40,189 bases of DNA from assembly GCA_947581835.1 (NCBI GenBank), contig CANPVV010000008.1, positions 1-40,189 on the forward strand, read 5' to 3'. The notes under the pieces are model-generated. The model made no database searches, was not told the origin of the DNA, and saw only the letters and a program-made list of their open reading frames with translations. Shown here one piece after another: positions 7,638 through 11,468 of this stretch. How positions within the stretch are numbered: position 1 is the stretch's first letter; the number at the start of each line of letters is the position of its first letter. A program made the translations under genes and the position numbers. This stretch comes from an uncultured Bacilli bacterium (lineage in GTDB: Bacteria; Bacillota_I; Bacilli_A; RF39; UBA660).

Positions 7638-7741
7638 GTAGTTATATGAGAGAGATTAAATATTTAATTTGTAAAATTTTGATTAATTAGAGGAAATTGT
7701 TTTAAATATAAATTTTTTTTGATATACTTATTTTGGTGATT

Positions 7742-8857
7742 ATGGTGGAAGCAGTAGGTATTATTTGTGAATATAATCCTTTACATAAGGGACATATATA
7801 TCATATAGAAGAGACTAAAAAGAAGTTTCCTGGTAGAACTTTAATATTAGTTTTAAATGGTTATTTTTTGGAACGAGGAGAAGTTAGTTTACTTTCAAAA
7901 GAAAATAAAACTTTGGCAGCTTTAATTTATGGGGTTGATTTAGTAGTAGAGTTACCCTTTATATTTGGAGGACAAAGTGCTGATATTTTTGCAGAAGCAG
8001 CTTTGAAAATTTTAAATATTTTAGGGTGTAAAGATATTGTTTTTGGAAGTGAATGCGATGATATTGAAATTTTAAAAAAGGTAAGTTTAATTCAAAATAC
8101 TAGTGAATATAATAAAAAAGTAAAAGAATTATTAGATACAGGACTTAATTATCCCACTGCTTTAGCTAAAGCTTTAGATATTAAAGAGAATATTTTTAAT
8201 CCAAATGATTTATTAGGGATTTCTTATTTAAAAGCAATTAATAAAAATAATTATCAAATTGATGCCCATACAATAAAAAGAACTAGTAATTATCATAATT
8301 TAGAAGAAAATAAAGAGATTATAAGTGCGAGTAATATTAGAAATAGAATTAAAAATAAAGAAGATATTTCATTATATGTACCAAGAAAAGTAATTAAATT
8401 AATTGAGAATTTAGATTTAGATATGCTTTTTCCTTATTTAAAGTATAAGATATTAATAGATAATGATTTAAGTAGATATTTAACGGTAGATGAAGGAATA
8501 GATAATAGATTAAAAGAAAAAATTAAAGATGCAAATAATATCGAGGAATTAATAAAGTTAGTTAAGAGTAAAAGATATACTTATAATAAAATTCAAAGAA
8601 TGCTTATACATATATTACTTGAAGTTCCTAAAGATATTAATAAGATTGCAGATATTGAATATATTAAGATTTTAGGATTTAATAAGAAAGGAAGAAGTTA
8701 TTTAAAAAGTTTGAAAGATTTAGAGGTAGGATTGGTACCTATTCCTAATTCTAATACTTATAAATATGAAATTAAAGCAGCTTTATTATATAGTTTGATT
8801 AGTAAAAATAATATTATGAAATTTGAAAAGAGTAATAAACCGATATTTTTAGAATAA
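7742..8857 (+). CDS. tmcAL: tRNA(Met) cytidine acetate ligase
   Basis: The TmcAL (YlbM) family activates acetate with ATP and installs N4-acetylcytidine at position 34 of elongator tRNA-Met. The N-terminus V-G-I-I-C-E-Y-N-P-L-H-K-G-H is the nucleotidyltransferase HxGH core (family form EYNPFHNGH), followed by LVLNGYFLERGE and the conserved ELPF and S-E segments (FGSECDD). Length (about 371 aa) is somewhat short of the usual 390-420. Homologues begin one residue later, so GTG at 7745 is an equally good start, with GGTGAT (7735-7740) at the short spacing seen in other genes here. A -10-like TATACT lies at 7723-7728. It is divergent from yceD and followed by the ATPase cassette, which has its own promoter. 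Confidence 0.93.
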   Translation: MVEAVGIICEYNPLHKGHIYHIEETKKKFPGRTLILVLNGYFLERGEVSLLSKENKTLAALIYGVDLVVELPFIFGGQSADIFAEAALKILNILGCKDIVFGSECDDIEILKKVSLIQNTSEYNKKVKELLDTGLNYPTALAKALDIKENIFNPNDLLGISYLKAINKNNYQIDAHTIKRTSNYHNLEENKEIISASNIRNRIKNKEDISLYVPRKVIKLIENLDLDMLFPYLKYKILIDNDLSRYLTVDEGIDNRLKEKIKDANNIEELIKLVKSKRYTYNKIQRMLIHILLEVPKDINKIADIEYIKILGFNKKGRSYLKSLKDLEVGLVPIPNSNTYKYEIKAALLYSLISKNNIMKFEKSNKPIFLE

Positions 8858-8912
8858 AGTTTATTATTTTTTTTGAATATATTTTAATATATCGGAAATA
8901 ATAAGTGTGTAT

Positions 8913-8941
8913 TTGACTTTAAACGAAAAATACGTTATAAT
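8913..8941 (+). promoter_or_regulatory. Near-consensus promoter of the ATPase/TOPRIM-like cassette
   Basis: TTGACT (8913-8918), exactly 17 bases, then TATAAT (8936-8941), 20 bases before the ATG. It is the strongest plus-strand promoter I see in the window and makes the cassette independent of tmcAL. Confidence 0.85.
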
Positions 8942-8961
8942 TTAGATGAATTGAGGGATAA

Positions 8962-10098
8962 ATGATGAGATTATTAAAAATTATAATTAAAAATTATAAA
9001 TTATTAGATGATAACTTTAGTTTAGAATTTATACCTAAGGGAAGAAAGAATATTGAAGATAAGGAGTTTGAGTTAAATCAGATTGATGATAATTTGTATA
9101 CGTTTGCAACAATGGCTGTAATTGGAAAAAATGCAAGTGGAAAGACTACAACTTTAGAAGCTCTAGCTATAGCTTATGATATTCTTTCTAATTTTAAAAT
9201 AAAACACTCTTTAAATGAAATTAAAAATAATAATAAAACTATTAGTTTGGAATTATATTTTTATTATAATAAATATTTATATTATTATAAAACAGATTTA
9301 GGATATGAACCTATTAATGATTTTGTAAGCTTTAAAAATGAAGAATTATATAATTGTTTTTATTATAAAAGTTATAGTAATGATATTTTTAATTTAGATA
9401 AATATTCTAAAATAATAAATAATACTGTACTTCCTGATGATACTTCAATAATTTATACTATTTTAAATAAAATTACAATGCGAGGATTATATTATTGGTC
9501 AGATTTTGAGTTATCTTATGATATAGATAAAATTATTGAAATTTATAAAACTTTAGATACTAATATGCTAAGTGTAGTAGTTAATTTACTTGATGAACAT
9601 ATAAAGGATATTAAAAGAGAAAATAATAATAAATTTATGATTTTATATAATGATAATACGCAGGAAGTTAAAACCAAAAAAGAATTATTTAGTATGCTTT
9701 CAAGTGGAACTACAAAAGGTTTATTTTTATATATACAAATTATTACAGCAATGCTTTCCGGAGCGGACGTTTTAGTTGATGAAATAGAAATACACTTTCA
9801 GAGAACTTTAATTGATAATATTATTAATTTATTTAAAGATAAAAGCATTAATAAATATCATTCTACTTTAATTTTTTCAACTCATTATCCTGAATTATTA
9901 GATTTAACTAGTAGAACAGATAACATTATTATTTGTAAGCAAAATAAAAAGAGAATAATTGTAGAAAATATGTATGATTACAATTTAAGAAGTGATTCAA
10001 TTAAAAGTAAAAAACTTTATGAAAATTATTTTAATACTGCAATTAATTATGAAACACTAATGAATTTAAAAAAGGAGCTTATGCAGGAAATTAAATGA
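8962..10098 (+). CDS. AAA/ABC-type ATPase of a two-gene cassette
   Basis: The 378-aa protein is an SMC/Rad50-like ABC ATPase of the AAA_15/AAA_21 type. Walker A is GKNASGKTT (55-63), a signature-like segment SSGTTKG sits near 248-254, Walker B with the catalytic pair is VLVDEIEIHF (D273, E274) and the H-loop is FSTHYPE (H308). The inserted middle (about 85-240) is Asn/Tyr-rich and too short for a long coiled coil. No nuclease domain is fused to it. The final ATGA overlaps the next gene, so the two are translationally coupled. GAGGGA (8953-8958) favours either ATG 8962 or 8965. ATPases of this type paired with a TOPRIM or RloB-like partner occur in defence systems such as PARIS, AbiL and Gabija; function here is inference. 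Confidence 0.85.
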   Translation: MMRLLKIIIKNYKLLDDNFSLEFIPKGRKNIEDKEFELNQIDDNLYTFATMAVIGKNASGKTTTLEALAIAYDILSNFKIKHSLNEIKNNNKTISLELYFYYNKYLYYYKTDLGYEPINDFVSFKNEELYNCFYYKSYSNDIFNLDKYSKIINNTVLPDDTSIIYTILNKITMRGLYYWSDFELSYDIDKIIEIYKTLDTNMLSVVVNLLDEHIKDIKRENNNKFMILYNDNTQEVKTKKELFSMLSSGTTKGLFLYIQIITAMLSGADVLVDEIEIHFQRTLIDNIINLFKDKSINKYHSTLIFSTHYPELLDLTSRTDNIIICKQNKKRIIVENMYDYNLRSDSIKSKKLYENYFNTAINYETLMNLKKELMQEIK

Positions 10099-10631
10099 AA
10101 TATTTAATTATGTGTGAAGGACCTAATGAGAAAGCTGTAGTAAATTTACTTTTAGATAATAATCTATTAATATTTAATAGAAATGATTTGTTGGGATTAG
10201 ATATTTATCATGCTAGACAATTAGTTCCTTATCTTGTTAATTTAATAAACTCTTATAATTGTAGTAATTTAAAAATAATTAGAATTGGTGATAAATTCAC
10301 AGATAAATTAAAAATTCCTGAAAGTATTAAACATATAATTGATTATAAACAAATATTAAAATGTCATACACATCCTGAGTTAGAAATTTTACTTATTATT
10401 GATAAAAATTTATTTGATAAATTTAATAAAGAAAAATCTAAAATTAAAGCTAAAGATTTTGCAAAAAAGCATATTTCTTTAAATGGGCATTTATATGATA
10501 ATACAACTCAATTTTGGAATGATTATTTTAAAAATAATATTAAAAATTTAGTTAATGATATTAAAAAATGTAAGAAAATTGGTAAAAATAAAAAAGAAGA
10601 AATATATTTAGCTGATTTATTAAAAAAATAA
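10095..10631 (+). CDS. Small TOPRIM-like partner of the ATPase
   Basis: The 178-aa protein opens with MKYLIMCEGPNEKAV, where E8, G9 and E12 fit the first TOPRIM motif (hydrophobic strand, E-G-x-x-E). A second acidic patch, IGDKFTDKL (D66, D70), could supply the metal-binding aspartates, followed by a strand rich in branched residues with E95, E97 and D103. The C-terminus ends in a Lys-rich stretch and YLADLLKK. The small size argues against a complete OLD or DUF4435 nuclease. It overlaps the ATPase gene by 4 bp, so the pair is one unit. RloB-like proteins are an alternative. TOPRIM is an assignment by motif only. The gene runs toward mutM with a gap of 18 bp and no obvious strong terminator. 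Confidence 0.7.
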   Translation: MKYLIMCEGPNEKAVVNLLLDNNLLIFNRNDLLGLDIYHARQLVPYLVNLINSYNCSNLKIIRIGDKFTDKLKIPESIKHIIDYKQILKCHTHPELEILLIIDKNLFDKFNKEKSKIKAKDFAKKHISLNGHLYDNTTQFWNDYFKNNIKNLVNDIKKCKKIGKNKKEEIYLADLLKK

Positions 10632-10649: not shown

Positions 10650-11468
10650 TTATTTTTGGCAAGTAGGACAATAGTAAGTACTTCTTCCACCAATTTTAAT
10701 ATTTACAATGGGAGTATTACAGATTGAACATGGTTCCCCTTCTTTTTTATGGACTTTGAGTTTTTGTTGAAATCTTCCTGTTACACCTAGACTTGAAGTA
10801 TAACTTTTAATCGTAGTTCCACCCATTTTTATAGCTTCCGTTATAATTTCGTTACTTCCTTTAACAATTAGATCACATTCTTCTTTAGTTAACTTTGATG
10901 CTTCTTTTAAAGGATTAATACGAGCATAAAATAAGACTTCATTAACATAAATATTGCCTAAACCACTAATTATAGTTTGGTCTAATAAAACTGTTTTGAT
11001 GGGGAGTTTTTTATTTTTAAATTTAGTTAATAAATAAGAGCTAGTTAAATTTTTATCGCCAGGTTCAAGGCCTTGTTTAGCAATACTTGCAGTAGTTGCT
11101 AGTTCTTCTTTTTTGATTAAATTCATACGACCAAATTTACGGGTATCATGATATCTTAAAGTGGTATTATCTTGAAAGGTAAAAATTACGTGTTCATGTT
11201 TGTCTTTGGGTTCGTTTGATTTTTTTAGAAAGAACTTTCCTTCCATACGAAGATGAGATAATAAATAACGATCTTCAGTTTCAAAGATTAACCATTTACC
11301 TTTTCTTTTAATATCAATAAAACTATGATTGATTAAATCTTTAGTAAAACTAGTTATATTACTTTCAATCATGGGTTCATAGAAGACTTCTACTTTAGTT
11401 ATTTTTTTATTTAAAATTTGAGATTTTAGAGTATTTCTTACTGTTTCTACTTCAGCAATTTCAGGCAT
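10650..11468 (-). CDS. mutM: Formamidopyrimidine-DNA glycosylase
   Basis: Base-excision repair glycosylase/AP lyase that removes 8-oxoguanine and formamidopyrimidines. The N-terminus M-P-E-I-A-E-V-E gives the catalytic Pro and Glu after Met removal. LEPGD and the H2TH region (LDQTIISGLGNIYVNEVLF) are present, and the C-terminal zinc finger is intact (CSICNTP ... YYCPTCQ). Length of 272 aa is normal. AAGGAGGAA precedes the ATG. The gene lies 19 bp after polA on the same strand, a common repair pairing. Confidence 0.97.
   Translation of the reverse strand: MPEIAEVETVRNTLKSQILNKKITKVEVFYEPMIESNITSFTKDLINHSFIDIKRKGKWLIFETEDRYLLSHLRMEGKFFLKKSNEPKDKHEHVIFTFQDNTTLRYHDTRKFGRMNLIKKEELATTASIAKQGLEPGDKNLTSSYLLTKFKNKKLPIKTVLLDQTIISGLGNIYVNEVLFYARINPLKEASKLTKEECDLIVKGSNEIITEAIKMGGTTIKSYTSSLGVTGRFQQKLKVHKKEGEPCSICNTPIVNIKIGGRSTYYCPTCQK

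What the first reader, a model, noticed from the sequence alone, without database searches (positions are those of the whole stretch)
8913..10631. Two-gene ATPase + TOPRIM-like cassette as a candidate defence system
Seen: a TTGACT-17-TATAAT promoter, an ABC-type ATPase (Walker A 55-63, D273-E274, H308) and a 178-aa protein with E-G-x-x-E and G-D-x-x-x-D blocks, overlapping by 4 bp, inserted between tmcAL and mutM. Known: ATPase plus TOPRIM/RloB-like pairs include PARIS, AbiL, Gabija and OLD-type systems. Inferred: this is a compact relative in which the second protein is too small to be a standard DUF4435 or RloB nuclease.
Basis: partly seen in the sequence, partly recalled or inferred. Interest (0 to 1): 0.7.

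Follow-up and report, generated by a model that had tools for sequence, protein, structure and literature searches.

The report
Divergent AbiL-like ATPase–TOPRIM defence pair
Two overlapping bacterial genes encode an ATPase and a small TOPRIM-type nuclease that the ATPase probably keeps in check until a phage attacks; it looks like a divergent form of the known AbiL/PARIS kind of phage defence, sitting in a gap between housekeeping genes where related species carry other defence genes.

Summary
An OLD/AbiLi-type ABC ATPase (8962/8965-10098) and a 178-aa protein (10095-10631) overlap by 4 bp behind a conserved promoter, between tmcAL and mutM. The 178-aa protein matches no Pfam, PADLOC, NCBIfam or PHROG family, but AlphaFold (pLDDT 92) gives a fold whose best non-orphan PDB matches are the OLD and GajA TOPRIM domains. 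Across 28 diverse relatives E8-G-x-x-E12, D66 and T92-x-x-E95-x-E97 are invariant, close to the OLD two-metal set, with DxD reduced to one invariant Asp. The two genes always occur together, in Lachnospiraceae, Bacilli, Bifidobacterium and Ligilactobacillus, on plasmids and in predicted prophages. The tmcAL-mutM gap is a variable slot: empty in at least four congeners; others carry a TdeIII R-M system, DUF1016, Bro-N or, next to mutM, canonical AbiL. New here: in nine decayed loci the small gene is broken and the ATPase intact, in none the reverse (P about 4e-5 by length), as expected if the small protein is toxic and the ATPase restrains it. Verdict: a new variant of the AbiL/PARIS-like ATPase-TOPRIM kind, probably abortive infection. 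Trigger and nuclease substrate are unknown.

The parts
8913..8941 (+). sigma-70-type promoter TTGACT-17-TATAAT
   Evidence: 11/12 consensus; hexamers kept in L159 and L161
8962..10098 (+). ABC-type (OLD/AbiLi-like) ATPase; likely start 8965; proposed sensor and restraint of the nuclease
   Evidence: Pfam AAA_21 E 2.2e-15; PADLOC AbiLi E 2.9e-33; model pLDDT 86 matches Rad50/PtuA/AriA heads
9124..9147 (+). Walker A, GKNASGKT (residues 55-62)
   Evidence: G55 K56 N57 S59 G60 K61 invariant in 33 homologues
9697..9720 (+). ABC signature, LSSGTTKG (residues 246-253)
   Evidence: S247 G249 T250 K252 G253 invariant
9778..9789 (+). Walker B end, D273-E274-I-E276
   Evidence: D273 E274 E276 invariant
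9883..9885 (+). H-loop/switch His, H308
   Evidence: T307 H308 Y309 invariant
10095..10098 (+). ATGA overlap, translational coupling
   Evidence: 4-bp overlap in 18 of 29 pairs, 1-bp in 6 more, 0 nt in 3
10095..10631 (+). 178-aa TOPRIM-fold protein, proposed toxic nuclease effector
   Evidence: AlphaFold pLDDT 92.2; OLD/GajA Toprim matches; 29-row alignment
10116..10130 (+). TOPRIM motif 1, E8-G-P-N-E12
   Evidence: E8 G9 E12 invariant in 28 diverse members
10281..10304 (+). TOPRIM motif 2 (modified DxD), R63-I-G-D66-x-x-x-D70
   Evidence: D66 invariant in the broad set; 70 is D (20) or E (9) in the core
10368..10385 (+). third metal-site motif, T92-H-P-E95-L-E97
   Evidence: T92 E95 E97 invariant in the broad set; compare T506/E508 of Bp OLD (PMC6755086)
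10434..10436 (+). K114, candidate catalytic Lys
   Evidence: invariant in 29 core members; equivalence to OLD K562 is a guess
7733..8857 (+). tmcAL, left border of the variable slot
   Evidence: PDB 5y0n E 1.4e-57
10650..11468 (-). mutM (fpg), right border of the variable slot
   Evidence: PDB 1tdz E 8.4e-62

Best explanation
It is a two-gene anti-phage system of the AbiL/PARIS kind. SHOWN: conserved, translationally coupled genes; an ABC ATPase with all catalytic motifs; a 178-aa protein predicted to have the TOPRIM fold, with most of the OLD two-metal residues; obligate pairing; mobile, patchy distribution; polarity of decay (effector lost, ATPase kept). INFERRED: the ATPase forms an oligomer that binds and restrains the small TOPRIM protein. 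A phage-dependent signal at the ATPase releases or activates it. The TOPRIM protein then cuts nucleic acid (tRNA, as AriB does, or DNA, as OLD/GajA do) and growth stops before phage can multiply.
For: ATPase: AbiLi profile E 2.9e-33; structural matches to Rad50, PtuA and AriA. Our ATPase HMM finds ATPases next to RloB at E 1e-22 to 5e-10. Small protein: Toprim matches 6njv Z 6.2, 4.2 A over 145 residues, and 8x5i GajA Z 5.9; in the viral library the only high-ranked match with probability over 0.5 is an RloB-like protein (prob 0.51, E 0.09). E8, E12, D66, T92, E95, E97 invariant, comparable with Bp OLD E400, E404, D455/D457, T506, E508 (PMC6755086). Pairing: Mantel r 0.91, 0 of 2000 permutations. 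Polarity: nine loci with the small gene broken and the ATPase intact, none the reverse; P 3.8e-5 for length-proportional hits, 3.6e-4 for a strict seven. Mobility: 10 of 291 family genomes and 15 of 392 phylum genomes; predicted virus contigs beside terminase, portal or recombinase genes; plasmids. Slot: empty or carrying other defence genes in congeners. Precedent: AAA plus TOPRIM_OLD pairs tested as toxin-antitoxin (PMC10440598); AriA holds AriB, a tRNase (PMC12409363).
Against: No experiment on any member is known to me. Foldseek alone gives no significant match for the small protein, and the VIA Z-scores of 5.8-6.2 for OLD and GajA lie in the range that common folds can reach. Profile-profile links are weak: RloB P 0.0017, OLD Toprim P 0.014. 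The DxD motif has one invariant Asp. Decay polarity rests on draft genomes, and it also fits a pure toxin-antitoxin module.
Confidence: 0.72

Rival explanations
1. A toxin-antitoxin or addiction module whose benefit is its own maintenance on mobile elements, not phage defence. The ATPase is the antitoxin and the TOPRIM protein the toxin.
For: Decay polarity; plasmid and prophage carriage; AAA/TOPRIM_OLD pairs behave as toxin-antitoxin in E. coli (PMC10440598).
Against: The chromosomal slot also holds R-M, AbiL, DUF1016 and Bro-N cargo, a defence-type mix. An ATP-hydrolysing ABC antitoxin is costly for a pure addiction module, and AbiL itself is an abortive-infection system.
Confidence: 0.17
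2. A true but highly diverged AbiL: the 178-aa protein is an RloB/AbiLii orthologue whose sequence has drifted beyond profile detection.
For: The ATPase is recognisably AbiLi; weak RloB profile hits in the Ligilactobacillus member (E 0.011) and weak AbiLii hits in 2 of 29 members; hhalign against RloB P 0.0017 versus 0.6-0.7 for a mutM control.
Against: No member reaches the RloB cut-off. Both forms are old and coexist at the same locus in one genus. This overlaps with the main explanation and differs only in naming.
Confidence: 0.35
3. A DNA-repair or housekeeping pair of Rad50/RecF type, with the small protein as a nuclease subunit.
For: The ATPase model resembles Rad50 heads and the pair lies beside mutM and polA.
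Against: Present in about 3-4% of genomes; congeners lack it with the flanks intact; repeated decay.
Confidence: 0.04

Closest known systems
AbiL (AbiLi + AbiLii/RloB), Lactococcus lactis and homologues
   Same: Two genes, AbiLi-type ATPase first, TOPRIM-related effector second; plasmid and prophage carriage; both forms occur next to mutM in this genus (window and G675).
   Different: The second protein is not recognised by the AbiLii or RloB profiles; it carries R-x-G-D-x3-D/E and T-x-P-E-x-E in place of RloB's motifs; 178 aa against about 200-300.
PARIS (AriA + AriB)
   Same: Separate ABC ATPase and TOPRIM effector; the ATPase model matches AriA (8v47, Foldseek E 2.6e-7).
   Different: No AriB or DUF4435 profile hit; effector smaller (AriB's size is from my own knowledge); trigger unknown.
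Gabija GajA / OLD class 1-2 nucleases
   Same: TOPRIM fold of the small protein is structurally closest to OLD and GajA C-termini; similar metal-site residues.
   Different: Domains on separate genes; no GajB helicase next to it.
AAA (node D29) + TOPRIM_OLD (nodes D44, D60, M70) pairs of the NetFlax network (PMC10440598)
   Same: Same architecture; tested as toxin (TOPRIM) neutralised by the AAA protein. One of these nodes may contain this family.
   Different: Membership of this family in any of those nodes could not be checked, as the supplementary tables were not readable here.

Membership tests
TOPRIM superfamily | invariant Glu after beta-1 (E-G-x-x-E in OLD/RloB) | tested here: met
   E8, G9, E12 invariant in 28 diverse members; beta-1 is residues 2-7
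TOPRIM superfamily | DxD after beta-3 | tested here: inconclusive
   one invariant Asp, D66, two residues after strand 59-64; second acid at 70 (D/E) in the core only; no DxD
TOPRIM superfamily | fold | tested here: met
   VIA Z 5.8-6.2 to OLD C-termini and 5.9 to GajA over 136-149 residues, moderate scores; Foldseek alone not significant
AbiL | AbiLi ATPase profile | tested here: met
   PDLC02335 E 2.9e-33
AbiL | AbiLii/RloB second gene | tested here: not met
   no PDLC02337 or PF13707 hit for the window protein; 2 of 29 members weak at best E 0.013
AbiL | abortive infection phenotype | not testable with these tools
   needs experiment
RloB (PF13707) | profile above gathering cut-off | tested here: not met
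   0 of 29 members; profile-profile P 0.0017, not decisive
PARIS | AriB (DUF4435) effector | tested here: not met
   no hit in Pfam or PADLOC
PARIS | AriA-like ATPase | tested here: inconclusive
   PDLC02980, whose match equals that of the generic AAA_21 model, E 2.1e-15, weaker than AbiLi
Gabija | GajA fusion plus adjacent UvrD-like GajB helicase | tested here: not met
   separate ORFs; neighbours are tmcAL and mutM
ABC ATPase (OLD/SMC-like) | Walker A, signature, Walker B Glu, H-loop | tested here: met
   all invariant or nearly so in 33 homologues
toxin-antitoxin-like module | toxin lost alone, antitoxin not lost alone | tested here: met
   9 against 0; P 3.8e-5
toxin-antitoxin-like module | toxicity and neutralisation in cells | not testable with these tools
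   needs experiment

The most novel reading that the evidence does not exclude
The 178-aa proteins are a separate, so far unnamed TOPRIM effector family with a rebuilt metal site (E-G-x-x-E / R-x-G-D-x3-[DE] / T-x-P-E-x-E in place of DxD), forming with their ATPase a defence system that present detection tools miss, and having their own trigger and nucleic-acid target.
Probability: 0.45. Interest if true: 0.55.

Novelty: new variant of a known kind. Interest (0 to 1): 0.42.

Why it matters
PADLOC finds the ATPase as AbiLi but finds no partner for it, so these systems are probably under-counted in gut Bacillota. The family offers a compact (about 555 aa in all), translationally coupled ATPase-TOPRIM pair for work on how ABC ATPases hold TOPRIM nucleases. 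The 9:0 decay polarity is computed evidence, independent of any assay, that the TOPRIM partner is the harmful one, and the same test can be run on AbiL, PARIS and Septu. The tmcAL-mutM gap is a small defence slot to mine in this genus.

Tried and rejected
Sequence searches of the 178-aa protein against Pfam, PADLOC, NCBIfam, PHROGs, PDB sequences and phage records gave nothing useful. Weak hits to glutathione reductase and a monooxygenase profile are chance. Foldseek alone on PDB and on the viral library gave no E below 0.001, and only the VIA re-alignment ranked Toprim domains high; DUF4435/AriB structures did not appear in that list, which excludes nothing. hhalign against OLD Toprim was not significant (P 0.014). 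Housekeeping role rejected by patchy distribution and empty sites. No Rfam RNA at the locus, so nothing points to a known retron or RNA antitoxin there. A compositional-island test was uninformative: GC of the pair is about 20%, as in tmcAL next to it. Krishnan et al. 2020 on ABC ATPases is not in the library.

Full report
OBSERVATION. Both ORFs, the ATGA overlap and the promoter are as described. Homologues of the ATPase begin at the second Met (8965). The -35 and -10 hexamers are kept, at the same spacing of 17, in two congeneric loci whose spacers have diverged. TmcAL and MutM are confirmed by PDB homologues.

THE ATPASE. Pfam AAA_21 E 2.2e-15; the best defence profile is AbiLi, E 2.9e-33. 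Walker A, the signature LSSGT, Walker B D273-E274 and H308 are conserved in 33 homologues. The AlphaFold model (pLDDT 86) matches Rad50 and SMC heads, the Septu/retron PtuA proteins (Z about 16) and AriA of PARIS (8v47, Foldseek E 2.6e-7).

THE 178-AA PROTEIN. No profile library recognises it. AlphaFold on 29 homologues gives pLDDT 92 and pTM 0.88. In the VIA-align list the first hit is an uncharacterised archaeal protein (2p62, Z 8.2), followed by OLD C-terminal domains (6njv Z 6.2, 4.2 A, 145 residues; 6nk8 Z 5.8) and GajA (8x5i Z 5.9). These Z values are moderate, and Foldseek alone was not significant. What makes the case is the position and invariance of the residues: E8 and E12 right after beta-1, D66 just after the strand 59-64, and T92, E95, E97 leading into a helix. 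In Bp OLD the metal ligands are E400, E404, D455, D457, T506 and E508 (PMC6755086). The motif order is the same; DxD is reduced to one invariant Asp with an acidic residue four positions on. The residue-by-residue equivalence is my inference, since no coordinates were available to superpose.

RELATION TO RloB/AbiLii. Profile-profile comparison gives P 0.0017 against RloB, 0.014 against OLD Toprim, and 0.6-0.7 against a MutM control; RloB against OLD, which are accepted relatives, gives 0.0004. The Ligilactobacillus member hits RloB at E 0.011. In the viral structure library the only high-ranked match with probability above 0.5 is an RloB-like protein (prob 0.51, E 0.09, not significant). I conclude that it is probably a distant relative, but not a demonstrable member.

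PAIRING AND SPREAD. Intact small genes have the ATPase directly upstream on the same strand; gene junctions are 4-bp overlaps in 18 of 29 pairs and 1-bp in 6. The two proteins' distance matrices correlate at r 0.91, 0 of 2000 permutations. The family occurs in 10 of 291 genomes of the bacterial family and 15 of 392 of the phylum, in 31 loci of GTDB contigs, mostly gut Lachnospiraceae and Bacilli, on Bifidobacterium and Ligilactobacillus plasmids and in three predicted virus contigs. One of the virus contigs (L047) carries terminase and portal genes near the pair; L048 has an HNH and a terminase-small-like gene; L049 a serine recombinase. A portal gene among the neighbours is by Pfam, the rest by my reading of the translations.

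THE SLOT. In congeners tmcAL and mutM are separated by about 10 to 100 bp in G668, G097, G669 and G218, so the empty site is known. G670 and G673 carry the same pair there (53-56% identical). Others carry a TdeIII restriction-modification system (G679), a DUF1016/YhcG nuclease (G672, and beside the pair in G670), a Bro-N protein (G681), or unannotated genes (G667, G682, G665, G677, G680). In G675, where mutM is not followed by tmcAL, the gene pair next to mutM is canonical AbiL (AbiLi E 3.1e-76 plus RloB E 2.3e-20). Elsewhere, neighbours of the pair include phage integrases, type I specificity subunits, a type II methyltransferase, DarG, TIR-TM and MADS components, mostly single cases.

POLARITY OF DECAY. 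Scanning each locus in six frames, I found nine with a broken small gene and an intact ATPase: L007 (late stop), L008 (stop at 135), L015 (deletion and frameshift), L041, L043, L046 (deletions or truncations), L066 (frameshift), L205 (5' deletion), and L014 with L210 (stop; the ATPase is split only by contig ends). Three have both broken (L042, L044, L045). None has a broken ATPase with an intact small gene. If lesions fell by length (372 against 177 codons), nine of nine in the small gene has P 3.8e-5; a strict set of seven has 3.6e-4. Eight of the nine were first found by searches with the small protein, a bias against this result; sequencing errors would hit the longer ATPase gene more often. 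So the small protein is probably harmful without the ATPase, while the ATPase alone is tolerated.

MECHANISM. Known systems give the model. In PARIS a hexameric AriA sequesters the Toprim tRNase AriB until triggered (PMC12409363). AAA/TOPRIM_OLD pairs from Clostridium and Streptococcus were tested as toxin-antitoxin pairs (PMC10440598), and F. nucleatum AbiLii is toxic, though AbiLi did not neutralise it there (PMC3985639), which is a caution. I propose ATPase-held nuclease, phage-triggered release and abortive infection. The target (tRNA or DNA) and the trigger are open.

NOVELTY. The architecture is known; the second protein's family is, as far as the libraries show, unnamed, and the system would be missed as AbiL because its partner profile fails. 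Hence a new variant of a known kind.

Noticed in passing
L150:6814-7464, L151:999-1643, L153:719-1372, L154:269-937: A family of 214-222-aa proteins without Pfam or PADLOC hit (one member tested) occupies the tmcAL-mutM slot in four congeners; another candidate cargo of unknown function.
   Followed up: partly
L157:5884-7853: TdeIII-type restriction-modification system between tmcAL and mutM in congener G679.
   Followed up: yes
L156:331-2527: Canonical AbiL pair (AbiLi plus RloB) directly next to mutM in congener G675.
   Followed up: yes
window 8834-8874: The tmcAL 3' end carries an A/T-rich inverted repeat (AATAAAC...GTTTATT) followed by a T run, longer and better paired in empty-site congeners: a likely terminator at the left edge of the slot.
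   Followed up: no
L052:3401-3943 (WP_095759350.1): The Ligilactobacillus salivarius relative of the 178-aa protein is annotated 'N-6 DNA methylase', which looks like a misannotation.
   Followed up: no
L028:3205-4167, L029:685-1647, L035:3830-4750: In three Bacilli loci a further small AAA-type ATPase lies upstream of the pair and weakly matches the same ATPase profile.
   Followed up: no
L040:6001-7482: In Intestinimonas the small protein's frame is kept to residue 144 and then stays open to the contig end (494 aa): a fusion or a frameshift.
   Followed up: no
PDB 2p62 (PH0156); not in the window: An uncharacterised Pyrococcus protein is the best structural match of the 178-aa model (Z 8.2, 164 residues, 19% identity) and may itself be a TOPRIM nuclease.
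   Followed up: no
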